Shown: positions 26,588 to 40,623 of the stretch, piece by piece
How positions within the stretch are numbered: position 1 is the stretch's first letter
Layout of the letters: each line of letters opens with the position of its first letter
Origin: Thermoleophilia bacterium SCSIO 60948
GTDB taxonomy: Bacteria > Actinomycetota > Thermoleophilia > Solirubrobacterales > 70-9
Direction: 5' to 3'
Assembly: GCA_021496505.1 (NCBI GenBank)
Contig: CP053031.1
Span: 496,001 to 560,000 of the forward strand
Length of the DNA stretch: 64,000 bases
Notes under the pieces: generated by a model
What the model saw: only the letters and a program-made list of their open reading frames with translations
Databases searched by the model: none
What the model was told of the DNA's origin: nothing
Program-made: the position numbers and the translations under genes

Positions 26588-27094
26588 ATGAGCACGGTGA
26601 GAATCCGCGCCACCGTCAATGGTCAGGTCCGCGAGTCGGAGGTCGACGCGCGCAGGCTCCTGATCCATTGGCTGCGCGACGACCTTGGCCTGACCGGCTC
26701 GCACGTCGGGTGCGACACGTCGAACTGCGGCGCCTGCACCTGCCTGCTCGGCGACGAGGCGATCAAGAGCTGCACCGTGCTCGCGGCCCAGGCCGACGGG
26801 CTCGAGATCACGACGATCGAAGGCATGAGCCAGGACGGTGAACTGCATCCGCTCCAGGCCGCCTTCCGCGACGAGCATGGGCTCCAGTGCGGCTACTGCA
26901 CCCCCGGCATGATCATGGCCGCCGAGGGTCTGCTCCGCCGCAACCCGAACCCGTCCGAGGAGGAGGTCCGCCACGGTCTCGAGGGCAACCTCTGCCGCTG
27001 CACGGGCTACCAGAACATCGTCAAGGCGGTGATCACGGCCTCCCAGCACGGGCCGGGCGCCGGGACTCGCGAGCCGGAAGGGGCGCAGGTCTGA
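26588..27094 (+). CDS. Mo-hydroxylase small subunit, 2x[2Fe-2S] (CoxS-like)
   Basis: A 168-residue electron-transfer subunit of a xanthine/CO dehydrogenase-type molybdenum hydroxylase. The plant-type ferredoxin site (CDTSNCGAC...C, residues about 41-60) and the C-terminal all-helical site (CGYCTPGM and CRCTGYQNI) give two [2Fe-2S] clusters linking Moco to FAD. ATG 26588 is preceded by AAGGAGAGGT. First gene of a nine-gene operon. Its stop overlaps the large-subunit start (TGATG). Confidence 0.93.
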
Positions 27095-29601
27095 TGGAGG
27101 CCGGTACCGCACCAGAGCAGACGAACGGCAACGCCAACGGCGACGGCGCCGAGAAGTGGGTCGGCCAGGCGATCAAGCGCCTCGAGGACCCGCGCTTCAT
27201 CACCGGCACCGGCCGCTATACCGACGACATGACGATCCCCGGCCTCGTCTACATGGCCGTGGTGCGCTCCCCCGAGGCACATGCGGAGATCGTCTCGATC
27301 GACAAGTCCGAGGCCGAGGCGATGGAGGGCGTCGTCGCCGTCTACACCGCCGAGGACCTCAACCTCCAGTCCGGTATCCCGATGGTCTGGGACCCGCCCG
27401 GGGTCGACATCAACACGCCCGCCAACATGCCGCTGAAGTCGGGCGAGGTGAAGGCCGTCGGCGACCCCGTCGCCGTCGTCCTCGGTACGGACAAGTACGG
27501 CGTCGTCGACGCGGCCGAGATGGTCATCGTCGAGTACGAGCCCAAGCCTGCCGTCGTCGATCCCGAGAAGGCGCTCGAGGAGGGCTCGGACCTCGTCTGG
27601 GACGAGTTCGGGACGAACAAGACCCACGAGTGGGCGCTCGCCGGTGGCGAGGACATCGAGCAGGCGATCCAGAACGCCGACGTCGTCGTCGAGCAGCGGA
27701 TCGTCAATCACCGCACGGCCGGCGCACCGATCGAGCCACGCTCGGCGATCGCGGAGGCGCGTGGCGACCAGATCACGCTGTGGTCATCGACGCAGATTCC
27801 GCACATCACCCGGTTCTTGCTCTCGGGGATCCTCGGCATGTCCGAGGACAACTTGCGCGTCGTCGCCCCGGACGTCGGCGGCGGCTTCGGCGGCAAGCTG
27901 AACACGATCCACGAGGAGGTCCTGGCCTGCGCGGTCGCGCGCAAGCTGCAGCGGCCCGTCAAGTGGACCGAGACGCGCTCGGAGAACATGTCGAACGCGC
28001 ACCACGGCCGCGATCAGATCGCCTACGTGACGCTCGCCGCGAAGTCCGACGGTGAGATCACCGGGGTCAAGCTGCGCGCGATCAACGACCTCGGGGCCTA
28101 CTTCCAGATCCTGACCCCGTTCATCGCCGAGCTCGGGTTCCCGGTCGCCGGTGGCTGTTACAAGATCCCGGCCATCGACCTGCACTTCACGGGCGTGTTC
28201 ACGAACAAGTTCCCGACCGATGCGATCCGCGGTGCGGGCCGGCCCGAGATGACGCACTGGATCGAGGTGATGATGGATCAGCTCGCGATGCGCCTGGACA
28301 TGGACCGGCTCGAGGTGCGCCGCAAGAACTTCATCCCCGCAGATCAGTTCCCGTTCACCACGGCGCTCGACATCACCTACGACTCGGGCAACTACGAGGG
28401 CACTCTCGACAAGCTGCTCGAGCACTTCGACGTCGAGGAGTTCGAGCGCGAGCAGGCCGAGGCGCGCGAGCAGGGCAAGTACCGCGGGCTCGGCTTCTCG
28501 ACCTACGTCGAGGTCTGCGGCCTCGCCCCGTCGCGGGCGGTCGGCCCGCAGGGCGTCGGGCTCCAGGCAGCGTTCTGGGAGTCGGCGGCGGTCCGCGTCC
28601 ACCCGTCGGGCTCGGCGACCGTCTACTCCGGCTCTTCGCCGCACGGTCAGGGGCTCGACACCGCGTTCGCGCAGATCGCGGCCGACCGGCTCGGCATCGA
28701 CCCGCACAAGGTCGACGTCCTGCACGGCGACACGAACCAGGGCCCGTTCGGATGGGGCACCTACGGGTCGCGCTCGCTCTCGGTCGGTGGCGAGGCGATC
28801 GCGAGGGCGTCCGAGCGCGTCGCCGACAAGGCGAAGAAGATCTGCGCCGCGATGCTCGAGGCCGCGCCCGAGGACATCGAGCTCCACGGCTCGGAGTTCC
28901 GCGTCAAGGGCCAGCCCGACAAGTCGATGACGATGGCCGATATCTCGCTCGCGGCGCACCTGCCGCCGAACGAGCTGCCGACCGACATCGAGCCCGGTCT
29001 CGAGGAGACGGCGTTCTACGACCCGGAGAACTTCGTCTTCCCGTTCGGCGCCCACGCCTGCGTCGTCGACGTGGACGTCGAGACCGGCAAGGTCGAGGTC
29101 GTGCGCTGGGTCGCCGTCGACGACTGCGGCCCGGCGATCAACCCGATGCTGATCGACGGCCAGGTCCACGGCGGGATAACCCACGGGATCGGCCAGGCGC
29201 TGTATGAGCAGATCGTCTACGACGAGGACGGCCAGCTCGTGACCGGCTCGTTCGTCGACTACGCGCTGCCGACGGCGGCCGAGGTCCCGATGTTCGAGAC
29301 CGACCGCCAGGAGACGCCGTCGCCGGTCAACTCGCTCGGCGTCAAGGGCGTCGGCGAGGCGGGGACGATCGCCGCCACGCCGGCGGTCGTCAACGCCGTG
29401 ATCGACGCGCTACGACCGCTCGGCGTCGACTACATCGACATGCCGATGACGCCGATGCGCGTCTGGCAGGCGCTCGAGGAGGCGAAGGGCAAGGGCTCGG
29501 GTCCGCGCGCGACCGAGCAGGGCCGCGAGCTCGGCGAGCACGGCCAGGGCGCCGCGGGCTCAGGGCCTACGAGCCCCGATGAGGCAGGAGGTGCGCTGTG
29601 A
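27094..29601 (+). CDS. Mo-hydroxylase large, molybdopterin-binding subunit (form II CoxL-like)
   Basis: An 835-residue catalytic subunit. Family motifs include GIGQALYEQ late in the protein, GGGFGGKLN near residue 265, AIRGAGRPE near residue 380 and GVKGVGEAG (the base-catalyst Glu) near 750. The active-site loop reads IRGAGR, matching form II/other hydroxylases rather than the AYxCSFR loop of genuine form I CO dehydrogenase. CO oxidation is therefore uncertain, and a purine, aldehyde or nicotinate-type substrate is equally possible. It is co-translated with the S and M subunits. Confidence 0.9.
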   Translation: MEAGTAPEQTNGNANGDGAEKWVGQAIKRLEDPRFITGTGRYTDDMTIPGLVYMAVVRSPEAHAEIVSIDKSEAEAMEGVVAVYTAEDLNLQSGIPMVWDPPGVDINTPANMPLKSGEVKAVGDPVAVVLGTDKYGVVDAAEMVIVEYEPKPAVVDPEKALEEGSDLVWDEFGTNKTHEWALAGGEDIEQAIQNADVVVEQRIVNHRTAGAPIEPRSAIAEARGDQITLWSSTQIPHITRFLLSGILGMSEDNLRVVAPDVGGGFGGKLNTIHEEVLACAVARKLQRPVKWTETRSENMSNAHHGRDQIAYVTLAAKSDGEITGVKLRAINDLGAYFQILTPFIAELGFPVAGGCYKIPAIDLHFTGVFTNKFPTDAIRGAGRPEMTHWIEVMMDQLAMRLDMDRLEVRRKNFIPADQFPFTTALDITYDSGNYEGTLDKLLEHFDVEEFEREQAEAREQGKYRGLGFSTYVEVCGLAPSRAVGPQGVGLQAAFWESAAVRVHPSGSATVYSGSSPHGQGLDTAFAQIAADRLGIDPHKVDVLHGDTNQGPFGWGTYGSRSLSVGGEAIARASERVADKAKKICAAMLEAAPEDIELHGSEFRVKGQPDKSMTMADISLAAHLPPNELPTDIEPGLEETAFYDPENFVFPFGAHACVVDVDVETGKVEVVRWVAVDDCGPAINPMLIDGQVHGGITHGIGQALYEQIVYDEDGQLVTGSFVDYALPTAAEVPMFETDRQETPSPVNSLGVKGVGEAGTIAATPAVVNAVIDALRPLGVDYIDMPMTPMRVWQALEEAKGKGSGPRATEQGRELGEHGQGAAGSGPTSPDEAGGAL

Positions 29602-30440
29602 TCCCGACGAACTTCGACTATCGACGGGCGGAGTCGGTGGACGACGCGATCGACGCGATCGCGGGCGGCGGCTACGACACGAAGCTGATCGCCGGCGGGC
29701 ACTCGTTGCTGCCGCTGATGAAGCTCCGGCTGGCCGCCCCCGCCGAGCTCGTCGACATCTCGCAGCTCGCCGAGCTGCAGGGTGCCGAGCGCTCGAACGG
29801 GTCGTGGACGATCCGTGGCGGTACCCGCCACCGCGAGCTGCAGGACACGCCGGACATGGGCCTGATCTCGGTCGCGGCGGCGCAGATCGCCGACCAGCAG
29901 GTTCGAAACCGCGGCACGATCGGCGGCTCGCTCGCGCACGGAGACCCGGCCTCCGACCTGCCGGCGGTGCTGCTCGCGACCGAGTCCGAGATCAAGGCCA
30001 AGGGCCCGAACGGCGAGCGCTCGATCCCGGCGCTCGAGATGTTCCAGGACTACCTGACGACGGCACTCGGCGACGACGAGCTGATCACCGAGATCTCGAT
30101 GCCGGCGATGGACGGCTACGGCTATGGCTACGAGAAGTTCATTCGCCGGGCCGAGGACTGGGCGATGGTCGGCGTCTGCGCGCTGGTCAAGAAGGGCTCG
30201 GACGGCTCTTGCGAGGACGTCCGCGTCGGGCTCACGCACATGAGCTCGACACCGCTTCGCGCCCGAGCCGTCGAGGACGCGCTGCGAGGCGGTGGCCTCG
30301 ACGCGGATTCGATCGCCTCGGCCGCCGAGCACGCCGCCGACGACACGAACCCACCCGGTGACCTCAACGCGACGCCGGACTACAAGCGGCACCTGGCGGC
30401 GGTGTTGTGCAAGCGGGCGCTCGAGCAGGCGGCGGCCTGA
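29598..30440 (+). CDS. Mo-hydroxylase FAD-binding subunit (CoxM-like)
   Basis: A 280-residue FAD subunit that passes electrons from the Fe-S clusters to quinone or another acceptor. The two FAD-binding signatures AGGHSLLPLMKLRLA (residues about 33-47) and TIGGSLAHGDPASDLP are intact, followed by the CoxM C-terminal domain. GTG 29598 overlaps the L-subunit stop by 4 bp. The gene order S-L-M differs from the M-S-L order of classical cox operons. A hairpin repeat follows its stop. Confidence 0.92.
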   Translation: MIPTNFDYRRAESVDDAIDAIAGGGYDTKLIAGGHSLLPLMKLRLAAPAELVDISQLAELQGAERSNGSWTIRGGTRHRELQDTPDMGLISVAAAQIADQQVRNRGTIGGSLAHGDPASDLPAVLLATESEIKAKGPNGERSIPALEMFQDYLTTALGDDELITEISMPAMDGYGYGYEKFIRRAEDWAMVGVCALVKKGSDGSCEDVRVGLTHMSSTPLRARAVEDALRGGGLDADSIASAAEHAADDTNPPGDLNATPDYKRHLAAVLCKRALEQAAA

Positions 30441-30473
30441 GTCGAGGAGCGTCCGCCGGGGCCTGGGTGCTCC

Positions 30474-30552
30474 GAGATAACTCCGGTGAGATGCTCCGCT
30501 TCGCGTCCGCTCTCACCGGGTTTGGGTGCGTTTCCGCGATGCAGGTCGTAGA
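30474..30552 (+). repeat. 79-bp hairpin repeat (copy R0) immediately before moxR
   Basis: Identical over 79 bp to 31624-31702. The core is a perfect stem, CCGGTGAGA at 30483-30491 pairing with TCTCACCGG at 30511-30519, with a 19-base loop. It ends 3 bp before the moxR GTG. A small frame from GTG 30467 (or ATG 30491) reads through it and ends in MQVVDE with its TGA overlapping the moxR start (GTGA, 30556-30559). Confidence 0.85.
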
Positions 30553-30555
30553 CGA

Positions 30556-31455
30556 GTGACAACGTTCTCGGGTCCAGCCAACCCCGCTGCGGTCGCGGCG
30601 CTTCTCGCCGGGGAGGGCTATCTCGCCGGTGAGGAGCTCGCGACCGCGATCTATCTCGGGCTCGCCCTCGAGTCGCCGTTGCTGCTCGAGGGCGAGGCGG
30701 GGGTGGGGAAGACCGAGGTCGCCAAGGCGCTCGCGAGCGCCTACGGGTCGCGGCTGATCCGTCTCCAATGCCACGAGGGCATCGACCTCGCCAGCGCCCT
30801 CTATGACTGGGACTATCCGCGCCAGCTGCTGTCGATCCGGGCCGCCGAGTCTGGTGGTGCCGGAGCGGGGGCCGGCCTCGACCCGTTCGGGCGCCCCGGC
30901 TCGGAGCCCGTCTCCGACCTCTACCGGCGCGAGTTCCTGCTCCGCCGCCCGCTCCTCGAGGCGATCGAGTCGCCCGAGCCGGTGGTGTTGCTGATCGACG
31001 AGCTCGACCGCGCCGACGAGGAGTTCGAGGCGTTCCTGCTCGAGCTGCTGTCGGAGTTCCAGGTGACGATCCCCGAGCTCGGGACGATCCGGGCCGCGCA
31101 GCGACCGATCGTCGTCATCACCTCGAACCGCACCCGCGAGCTCCACGACGCGCTCAAGCGCCGCTGCCTCTACCACTGGATCGACTACCCGAGTCCGGAA
31201 CGCGAGGCGCGGATCGTCCGCGAGCGGCTCCCGGGTGTCTCGGATGAGATCGCTCTGCGGGTCTGCGGAGCCGTTGCGCGGTTGCGCGGCGAGGACCTCT
31301 ACAAGCTGCCGGGTGTCGGCGAGACGATCGCGTGGGCGCAGGCTCTGCTCGCGCTCGGCCCGGAGGCGGGCCTCGAGCGCGGCCTCGGCGCCGTGCTCAA
31401 GGTCCGCGAGGACATCGACCGCGTCCGCGAGCGCGGGATCCTCGAAGGGGCATGA
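30556..31455 (+). CDS. MoxR-family AAA+ ATPase (CoxD-like)
   Basis: A 299-residue AAA+ ATPase predicted to help mature the Mo-hydroxylase, as CoxD does when it sulfurates the CO dehydrogenase active site. Walker A is GEAGVGKTE near residue 45, Walker B is VVLLIDELDRA near 150, sensor 1 is VITSN, and an arginine finger candidate lies in LKRRCLYHW. GTG 30556 starts 3 bp after a 79-bp repeat. Its stop overlaps an ATG that opens the repeat array. It pairs with the vWA gene downstream, the usual MoxR partner. Confidence 0.9.
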   Translation: MTTFSGPANPAAVAALLAGEGYLAGEELATAIYLGLALESPLLLEGEAGVGKTEVAKALASAYGSRLIRLQCHEGIDLASALYDWDYPRQLLSIRAAESGGAGAGAGLDPFGRPGSEPVSDLYRREFLLRRPLLEAIESPEPVVLLIDELDRADEEFEAFLLELLSEFQVTIPELGTIRAAQRPIVVITSNRTRELHDALKRRCLYHWIDYPSPEREARIVRERLPGVSDEIALRVCGAVARLRGEDLYKLPGVGETIAWAQALLALGPEAGLERGLGAVLKVREDIDRVRERGILEGA

Positions 31456-31709
31456 ACAACTCCGGTGAGATGCTCCGCTTCGCGTCCGCTCCCACCGGGT
31501 TCCGAGATACCTCCGGGGAAATGCTCCGCTTCGCGTCCGCTCTCACCGGGTTCGGGTGCGTTGGAGATAACTCCGGTGAGATGCTCCGCTTCGCGTCCGC
31601 TCTCACCGGGTTCGGGTGCGTTGGAGATAACTCCGGTGAGATGCTCCGCTTCGCGTCCGCTCTCACCGGGTTTGGGTGCGTTTCCGCGATGCAGGTCGTA
31701 GAGGCGTGA
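31452..31709 (+). CDS. Possible repeat peptide encoded by the hairpin array
   Basis: An 85-codon frame that begins at an ATG overlapping the moxR stop (ATGA) and ends at a TGA overlapping the coxE-like GTG (GTGA). It consists of copies of a 20-residue unit (SGEMLRFASALTGFGCVGDN-like) and ends MQVVEA. Spacings of 51, 60 and 60 bp keep the frame open. The antisense frames are also open, so this may be non-coding repeat DNA with a fortuitous frame. I cannot decide from sequence alone. Confidence 0.3.
   Translation: MNNSGEMLRFASAPTGFRDTSGEMLRFASALTGFGCVGDNSGEMLRFASALTGFGCVGDNSGEMLRFASALTGFGCVSAMQVVEA
31458..31702 (+). repeat. Tandem hairpin-repeat array (copies R1-R4) between moxR and coxE
   Basis: Four tandem copies of the unit in R0, starting near 31458, 31506, 31566 and 31626. 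R3 and R4 keep the perfect 9-bp stem. R1 has one stem change, and R2 has three changes in its left arm. The last 79 bp repeat R0 exactly and end 3 bp before the coxE-like GTG. The only other copy seen in the window is R0. Confidence 0.9.
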
Positions 31710-32818
31710 GCTTGGCGGTGACTGGGCCGCTCGTTCGGTTGGGCTCGGAGCTTCGGGCTCGGGGGGTTCGGGTTGGGACCGGGGAGCTCGTCACCGCGCA
31801 CCGGGCGCTTCTCGCGCTGCCCGAGCCGGACCGCCGCGCCTCGCGCCTGGCCCTGCGCGCGGTGCTCTGCGCGAAGCGCGAGGACATGCCGGCCTTCGAA
31901 GCCGCATTCGAGGCGGCGTTCGACGTCCGGGGCGACGTGCCGGCGCCGAACATCGACCCGGTCGCTACCGCGGTCCTGCCGCGTACCGCGATCCCTTCGG
32001 ATGCGCCGCCCGAGATCGGTGGAGTCGAGGAGATCGAGATCCGGCCGGCCGCCTTCTCCGAGCAGGAGCTGCTGGGCGCCAAGGACTTCGCCGAGTACTC
32101 GGACTCCGAGCGCCGCGTCGCGCGCTCGGTCCTGCGCGAGCTCGCACGCCACGGCCCGCAGCGGATCGGGCGCCGGCTGCGCGCCGACCGTCGCCACGGC
32201 GAGCGTCCCGACCTGCGCGCGACGCTGCGGCGATCGCTGCGCCACGGCGGCGAGCCGATCGAGCGCCGGCGCTCGGCGCGCCGTCCGCAACAACGCCCGC
32301 TCGTCCTCGTCCTCGACGTCTCGGGCTCGATGGACTCCTACGCGAGGATGCTGCTCCAGTACGCGCAGGCCTGCGCCGCCTCGCGCCGTCGCACGGAGGT
32401 CTTCGCGTTCTCGACCCGCCTCACCCGCATCACGCAGGAGCTCCGCGGCCGCGATCCGGACGCCGCGATAGCTCGCGCCGCGGCGCTCGGCGAGGACTGG
32501 TCCGGCGGGACGCGGATCGGCGAGTCGATCGCCGAGCTCAATCGGGTCCACGGACGGCGGATCGGTCGCGGCGCCGTCGTCGTGATCCTGTCCGACGGCT
32601 GGGAGCGCGGCGACCCGGACGATCTCGGTCGCGAGCTGGCCCGGCTCGGTCGTTGCTCGCATCGCCTGATCTGGCTCAATCCGCTCAAGGCCGCGCCCGG
32701 CTACGAACCGCTCGCGCGCGGGATGGCGGCGGCTCTTCCGCACCTCGACGCGTTTCTCGCCGGCAACTCGCTCGATTCGCTGGCCGAGCTCGCGGCGCTG
32801 ATGCGAACGGAGATGTGA
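31706..32818 (+). CDS. vWA-domain protein, CoxE-like
   Basis: A 370-residue protein with an Arg-rich N-terminal half and a C-terminal von Willebrand A domain. The MIDAS motif DVSGSMDS lies near residue 204, and the other metal-site residues are in GGTRIGES and LSDGWERGD. CoxE-type proteins work with the MoxR ATPase in maturing Mo-hydroxylases. GTG 31706 follows a copy of the same 79-bp sequence that precedes moxR. The stop lies 32 bp before the XdhC N-domain gene. Confidence 0.88.
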   Translation: MSLAVTGPLVRLGSELRARGVRVGTGELVTAHRALLALPEPDRRASRLALRAVLCAKREDMPAFEAAFEAAFDVRGDVPAPNIDPVATAVLPRTAIPSDAPPEIGGVEEIEIRPAAFSEQELLGAKDFAEYSDSERRVARSVLRELARHGPQRIGRRLRADRRHGERPDLRATLRRSLRHGGEPIERRRSARRPQQRPLVLVLDVSGSMDSYARMLLQYAQACAASRRRTEVFAFSTRLTRITQELRGRDPDAAIARAAALGEDWSGGTRIGESIAELNRVHGRRIGRGAVVVILSDGWERGDPDDLGRELARLGRCSHRLIWLNPLKAAPGYEPLARGMAAALPHLDAFLAGNSLDSLAELAALMRTEM

Positions 32819-40463: not shown

Positions 40464-40623
40464 CGACCCCGCCTCTCTTCTCGAGCCTGCGGAGTTAGCT
40501 GACGGGCTCGCGCATGTCGAAGAGCTCGCGCTAGGGATACGTCCGTATCCCATTCGCCCAGGAACGATTGGTTCCCCGGCTCCGCCGTCTCGAACAGCGG
40601 ATTCGGCTATGGCGCTGCGCAGC

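What the first reader, a model, noticed from the sequence alone, without database searches (positions are those of the whole stretch)
30467..31709. 60-bp hairpin repeats that form coupled mini-reading frames before both moxR and coxE
A 79-bp sequence is exactly duplicated, each copy ending 3 bp before the start codon of two successive genes (offset 1150 bp). Between moxR and coxE there are four tandem copies with spacings of 51, 60 and 60 bp, all multiples of three, so an 85-codon frame runs from an ATGA overlap with moxR to a GTGA overlap with coxE. The unit also has a perfect 9-bp stem. It could be a repeated translated leader that couples translation, a small repeat protein, or a REP-like mobile hairpin.
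Basis: seen in the sequence. Interest (0 to 1): 0.75.

Follow-up and report, generated by a model that had tools for sequence, protein, structure and literature searches.

The report
Untagged REP-like hairpin repeat at gene ends
The repeats are copies of a small dispersed DNA hairpin found in one family of actinobacteria; it tends to sit flush against the end of a gene, and in this genome it has landed twice between co-transcribed genes in a way that could pass ribosomes from one gene to the next.

Summary
A 79-bp exact duplication (84/86 bp including the start codon) precedes the moxR-like gene and coxE. Four tandem units fill the moxR-coxE gap, in one frame from ATGA to GTGA.

The unit belongs to a dispersed family: 11 copies at 7 sites in this 3.42-Mb genome, 5-24 in several relatives, none in most. 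Its core is a 9-bp stem, a bulged T, two more pairs and an almost invariant 14-nt loop. The stem co-varies strongly (851 Watson-Crick, 7 G.T and 22 other cells in 80 copies). There is no coding signature; the hairpin is open in two forward frames in nearly every copy.

New here: in 32 of 80 copies the 5' boundary lies within about 7 nt of the stop codon of a co-oriented gene (0.8% expected; 0 of 80 at the mirror boundary). The moxR ATGA junction is one case. Two related operons lack the repeats and have nearly abutting genes, so the window copies are insertions.

Best reading: an untagged REP-like hairpin of a new family. No Y1/RAYT transposase or integron integrase was found in this genome. 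Coupling through the mini-frame, as proposed for mycobacterial MIRUs, remains possible here but untested. It is not the family's rule.

The parts
30474..30559 (+). Element copy 1, before the moxR-like gene; 79 bp identical to copy 5, 84/86 through the GTGA start
30483..30519 (+). Hairpin of copy 1: arms 30483-30491 and 30511-30519, bulged T 30492, loop TCCGCTTCGCGTCC
30467..30559 (+). Possible mini-frame GTG...TGA (30 codons) whose stop overlaps the moxR GTG start (30556) as GTGA; translation not shown
31453..31503 (+). Element copy 2 (51-bp unit); its 5' end abuts the moxR stop codon TGA 31453-31455
31504..31563 (+). Element copy 3 (60-bp unit), imperfect stem
31564..31623 (+). Element copy 4 (60-bp unit)
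31624..31709 (+). Element copy 5, ending in the GTGA start of coxE
31452..31709 (+). Possible 85-codon mini-frame across the array, ATGA overlap with moxR and GTGA overlap with coxE; translation not shown
   Evidence: no Pfam or NCBIfam match
26588..27094 (+). Small Fe-S subunit of a molybdenum hydroxylase (Fer2, Fer2_2)
27094..29601 (+). Large molybdopterin subunit (MoCoBD_1, MoCoBD_2)
29598..30440 (+). FAD subunit (FAD_binding_5, CO_deh_flav_C), coxM-like
30556..31455 (+). MoxR/CoxD-like AAA ATPase
31706..32818 (+). CoxE-like VWA protein (PF05762)

Best explanation
The repeat is a short dispersed imperfect palindrome, an untagged REP-like element. Shown here: a covarying stem, a conserved bulged T, an almost invariant loop TCCGCTTCGCGTCC, sites filled in one genome and empty in another, and a 5' boundary that is often flush with the stop codon of the gene before it. 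Inferred: it spread as a DNA hairpin handled by an unidentified enzyme or by recombination, and insertions flush with a stop codon survive because they cost the host little; as with E. coli REPs such a hairpin may lower expression of the gene before it. In the window it entered two junctions of a molybdenum-hydroxylase operon, and one copy grew into four by tandem duplication. The element stays open in one frame, so a ribosome ending moxR at ATGA could restart, cross the hairpins and reach coxE at GTGA. That coupling step is a possible local consequence, not shown, and not the habit of the family.
For: Dispersed copies: 11 at 7 sites in the own genome, 5-24 in several relatives with zero matches of the reversed control, patchy across 299 genomes. 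Covariation: 76 double-change cells against 27.2 in shuffles and at most 24 in slid controls; 851/880 stem cells Watson-Crick and bulge T in 77/80. Placement: 32/80 flush with a co-oriented stop, control 0.76%, mirror 0/80; 18 convergent against 2 divergent sites. Insertion: syntenic coxM-moxR-coxE operons of G065 and G066 have no copy and nearly abutting or overlapping genes; filled/empty pair L232/L247. Orthologous copy with a changed but still mostly paired stem, L187/L214. No coding signature.
Against: No mobilising enzyme found: no Y1 transposase in the own genome and no OrfB. GTAG/CGTC tags of the main REP superfamilies are absent. Copy number is low for a REP (11). Some sites are shared between related genomes, which would also fit a conserved functional 3' element. 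The relatives used for the window's empty site are only order-level.
Confidence: 0.8

Rival explanations
1. A translational-coupling cassette of MIRU type: the element inserts at a stop/start junction and carries its own frame, so ribosomes pass from moxR through the mini-frame to coxE (and from coxM side to moxR) and keep the proteins in proportion.
For: ATGA and GTGA overlaps and a frame kept through all four units; neither start has a well placed Shine-Dalgarno by eye; syntenic operons have overlapping or nearly abutting genes, so the insertion would need to restore coupling; a third element tail supplies the start of a DUF1152 gene in G019; MIRU precedent (PMC12548453).
Against: Only three such starts among 80 copies. 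The hairpin is open in two frames in nearly all copies whatever their place. The coxM side has no overlap with the mini-frame (26 nt gap). No expression data.
Confidence: 0.3
2. A 3'-end RNA element: a transcription terminator, mRNA stabiliser or ribosome-stalling hairpin selected after stop codons, as shown for E. coli REPs within 15 nt of a stop.
For: Strong polarity and nearness to stops, excess of convergent sites, one array 4 nt after a tRNA gene, literature on REPs within 15 nt of stops (PMC12306157).
Against: No T-run after the hairpin; G.T and A.C cells are equally rare (7 and 6), so no sign of an RNA-strand constraint; the array folds no better than shuffled sequence (z -0.31); inside the operon a terminator would cut off coxE; several copies are antisense to both neighbours or inside genes.
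Confidence: 0.25
3. A small repeat protein encoded by 31452-31709.
For: 85 open codons with a codon-bias score of 18.7, above the caller's threshold of 12.
Against: The score is one motif counted about four times. In the family, variation at codon position 3 (0.35 bits) is lower than at position 2 (0.47). No Pfam or NCBIfam match. Syntenic operons lack it.
Confidence: 0.04
4. A non-autonomous relative of IS200/IS605 or RAYT elements whose transposase is missing from this genome.
For: Hairpin with a conserved extrahelical T, as hairpins read by Y1 transposases have (own knowledge); DNA-level rather than RNA-level covariation; Y1 genes exist in two carrier genomes, G012 and G014.
Against: No Y1 gene in the own genome, G002, G004, G013 or G019, which include the richest carriers; no element next to the Y1 genes of G012 and G014.
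Confidence: 0.12

Closest known systems
REP elements (GTAG/CGTC-tagged repetitive extragenic palindromes) and RAYT transposases; PMC3733652, PMC2817692
   Same: Short dispersed intergenic palindromes, both orientations, near gene 3' ends; GTAG REPs are reported to supply TAG stop codons to flanking ORFs; E. coli REPs within 15 nt of a stop affect translation (PMC12306157).
   Different: No GTAG or CGTC tag beside the stem, no RAYT in the own genome, low copy number, loop almost fixed while the stem varies in pairs, lineage-specific tails with further small hairpins.
MIRU (mycobacterial interspersed repetitive units; Supply 1997, described in PMC12548453 and PMC2734929)
   Same: Tandem intergenic units between co-transcribed genes, mini-frame overlapping the next start by 4 nt, junction of a few bases in relatives turned into hundreds; actinobacteria.
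   Different: No sequence relation was tested or seen; this family is built on a covarying hairpin, and most copies are not at start codons and not in same-direction operon gaps.
Enterobacterial RU/ERIC elements carrying ORFs (PMC2759123)
   Same: Small mobile hairpin sequences that are open in more than one frame and sometimes run into genes.
   Different: Unrelated sequence and size; other phylum.
Untagged REP-like families of M. tuberculosis, D. radiodurans and others (mentioned in PMC3733652)
   Same: REP-like palindromes without a terminal tag, in high-GC genomes.
   Different: Different hosts; those sequences were not compared here.

Membership tests
REP (broad sense: dispersed intergenic palindrome) | Repeated, interspersed, mainly extragenic copies | tested here: met
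   11 copies at 7 sites; about 67 of 83 copies outside predicted genes
REP (broad sense: dispersed intergenic palindrome) | Hairpin conserved by compensatory change | tested here: met
REP (tagged superfamilies) | GTAG or CGTC tetranucleotide unpaired at one end of the stem | tested here: not met
   Flanks are (G)ATAACT/GATCACC on the 5' side and GTTNGGG, ACCG or others on the 3' side; definition from PMC3733652
REP/RAYT system | Y1 (RAYT) transposase in the genome, often flanked by REPs | tested here: not met
   No PF01797 match in the own genome or four other carriers; no element at the Y1 loci of G012 and G014
MIRU | Element ORF coupled to the next gene by a 4-nt overlap | tested here: inconclusive
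   Met by sequence at moxR and coxE and GTGA start in L237; not met by most copies
MIRU | Sequence homology to mycobacterial units | not tested
   No mycobacterial MIRU sequence was fetched for comparison
MIRU | Copies oriented with, and between, genes of one operon | tested here: not met
   18 convergent and 18 opposite-orientation sites against 28 same-direction
Integron attC site | Integron integrase IntI in the genome | tested here: not met
   No carrier over the TIGR02249 cut-off
Intrinsic terminator | GC-rich hairpin followed by a T-run | tested here: not met
   3' flanks have no T-run
Known structured RNA (Rfam 15) | Match above gathering score on the element | tested here: not met

The most novel reading that the evidence does not exclude
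A family of mobile DNA hairpins with its own, still unknown, mobilising enzyme that reads the invariant loop and bulged T and places the element with fixed polarity at translation-termination sites. Its tail can hand the next gene a start codon, so insertions keep neighbouring genes translationally linked.
Probability: 0.2. Interest if true: 0.65.

Novelty: new variant of a known kind. Interest (0 to 1): 0.42.

Why it matters
It adds a structured repeat family in a little-studied actinobacterial order with an unusual conservation pattern: the loop is almost fixed while the stem is free to change in pairs. Its polarity toward stop codons gives a testable handle on how palindromes without RAYT choose sites and survive in dense operons. 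The window site is a natural case of an operon junction opened by an insertion yet left in frame, outside mycobacteria.

Tried and rejected
Integron attC (TAAC...GTTA ends in some copies): no IntI over cut-off in carriers. RAYT/IS200 association: no Y1 gene in the own genome, no element beside the Y1 genes of G012 and G014. Rfam families: none on the element. Plasmid or phage origin: no match in those collections. TAG as the target motif: stop usage not different (p 0.32). Unusually stable mRNA structure: the array folds no better than shuffled sequence (z -0.31) and the copy 1 region z is -0.96. Coding: codon-position entropies argue against it. Multiples of three as proof of translation: distinct tandem spacings seen in the family are 51, 60, 57, 93, 95 and 96; five of six are multiples of three, but the 96-bp pair follows a tRNA gene and the 93-bp array has a stop in each unit in that frame.

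Full report
OBSERVATION. The 79-bp copies at 30474-30552 and 31624-31702 are identical, and the likeness runs on through the GTGA start (84 of 86 bp). Four units lie between the moxR-like gene and coxE with spacings 51, 60 and 60. The core 19-mer occurs five times in the window against 0.15 expected with three mismatches allowed. The 85-codon frame 31452-31709 overlaps the moxR stop as ATGA and the coxE start as GTGA.

SETTING. The genes belong to a molybdenum-hydroxylase operon: Fer2 subunit, MoCoBD large subunit, FAD subunit, AAA ATPase (MoxR/CoxD-like), VWA_CoxE. NCBIfam scores are all below equivalog cut-offs, so the substrate is not settled and 'cox' is used only as a family name.

CENSUS. 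The genome is one contig of 3.42 Mb with 11 copies at 7 sites. Two sites are in the window. The others lie 4 nt after a tRNA-Thr gene (two copies), 23 nt after a gene stop in an acyl-CoA dehydrogenase region, flush with the stop of a gene convergent to an amidase-like gene, 78 nt after the stop of an HMG-CoA-reductase-like gene, and antisense between two co-directional genes (gene names there are by eye). Those copies are not directly ahead of start codons. With a 77-nt query, 9 of 100 relatives match, nearly all in the same family. With a degenerate 21-mer, 10 of 27 selected genomes have copies (24 in G019, 23 in G013), with zero matches to the reversed control. The covariance model finds matches, some weak, in 25 of 299 genomes; counts near 19 per genome are capped by the tool. 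An exact 20-mer scan of 84,980 species genomes gave 24 stretches, mostly Solirubrobacterales and Conexibacter MAGs; the one in Amycolatopsis lacks the stem and is probably chance.

STRUCTURE. The core is (G)ATAACT - 9-bp left arm - T - two bases - TCCGCTTCGCGTCC - two bases - 9-bp right arm. In 42 aligned distinct copies 9 pairs change on both sides; 76 cells show double changes against 27.2 in shuffles and at most 24 in slid controls. In 80 copies taken with their genomic context, 851 of 880 stem cells are Watson-Crick, 7 are G.T and 22 other, 6 of these A.C; the bulge is T in 77 and C in 3; 59 loops are identical and the rest differ at one base. The 80 copies were required to have at least 7 of 9 stem pairs, and the search word itself fixes most of the loop. 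That inflates the paired fraction and the loop's constancy, but not the balance of G.T against A.C. Structured RNAs tolerate G.U on one strand but not A.C; the near-equal numbers suggest that the constraint acts on DNA, or that palindrome-correcting mutation keeps the arms alike. The stable bulge argues that correction is not the whole story. This step is inference. At one orthologous site (L187 in G002, L214 in G013) the loop and upstream flank are kept while the stem has changed on both sides.

PLACEMENT. A home-made codon-bias gene caller, checked against the cox operon, and a caller-free test were used. In the caller-free test 32 of 80 copies have a stop codon that ends a long coding-like frame at -6 to +7 nt from the element's 5' boundary, in the same orientation; random positions in the same loci give 0.76%, and the mirrored 3' boundary gives 0 of 80. 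The range was chosen after seeing the first table, so the exact fold is optimistic, but the mirror control is not affected. The stops are the genes' own: TAG is not enriched (p 0.32). Among copies outside predicted genes, 18 lie between convergent and 2 between divergent genes. The moxR ATGA junction is thus an instance of a family habit, not special to this operon. Copies inside predicted genes (16 of 83) include likely miscalls and one oddity in G016 (L248).

INSERTION. In G065 and G066, order-level relatives with the same three genes in order, coxM, moxR and coxE nearly abut or overlap (moxR-coxE as GTGTCTGA), and neither the core pattern nor the covariance model finds a copy at the junctions. 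The window junctions are 115 and 250 bp. In another case G019 has element sequence after a gene whose orthologue in G014 has none (L232/L247). Other sites are shared within genus g2. The element therefore both moves and is inherited.

CODING. The hairpin is open in the window's frame in 77 of 80 copies and in the +1 frame in 80 of 80, so an open frame follows from its composition. Mean column entropy is 0.25, 0.47 and 0.35 bits at codon positions 1, 2 and 3; a coding sequence would vary most at position 3. The five window units differ by about as many replacing as silent changes, too few to test. No protein family matches.

START CODONS. The tail of copies 1 and 5, GGTCGTA-N3-G-N-GTGA, resembles tails in genus g12 such as GGTCGTACTCGCGTGA, so the GTGA may be part of the element. 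In G019 a DUF1152 gene (L237) has no ATG, GTG or TTG between an element-tail GTGA and its Pfam domain, which begins at residue 23, so its start appears to come from the element or further upstream.

MECHANISM. Shown: dispersal, covariation, polarity to stop codons, absence at the window junctions of order-level relatives. Inferred: spread as a DNA hairpin; survival of stop-flush insertions; local tandem growth. Open: whether the mini-frames are translated. MIRUs offer a precedent for coupling (PMC12548453) and for a few-base junction turned into tandem repeats that affect the next gene (PMC2734929). E. coli REPs offer a precedent for an effect on the upstream gene when within 15 nt of the stop (PMC12306157). 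GTAG REPs are reported to supply TAG stops to neighbouring ORFs (PMC3733652), so stop adjacency itself is not new.

LIMITS. Most relatives are unnamed draft genomes; starts are predicted; the ortholog comparison for the window is at order level; the paper library is partial, and no paper on these repeats was found in the searches made.

Noticed in passing
window 40468-40618 (-): c-di-AMP (ydaO/yuaA) riboswitch, 61.2 bits against a gathering score of 38.
   Followed up: no
L248 1993-2121 (G016 C14): Three 39-bp tandem copies of the loop motif lie inside a predicted gene of about 780 codons, without the usual stem; 39 is a multiple of three, so this may be a repeat within a protein.
   Followed up: no
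L217 around 2008 and 3714 (G013): Two copies lie backwards just before divergent genes; read from the gene's side the element end gives GGGGTGATC(C/G)ATG, so the element may supply the ribosome-binding site.
   Followed up: no
L006 1502-1576 and 1406-1462 (own genome 313199-313370): Two tandem copies begin 4 nt after a tRNA-Thr(CGT) gene on the same strand.
   Followed up: partly
L232, L225, L229, L231 and others (G019), also own-genome L006, L011: A second small hairpin, GCGACTTCGTCGC or GGGACTTCGTCCC (paired changes), follows the core by about 40-60 nt in three genera; the window copies lack it.
   Followed up: partly
L183 and L191 (G002): Two similar 1.2-kb stretches (about 70% identical) of one genome each carry a copy, apparently inside a gene on the other strand.
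   Followed up: no
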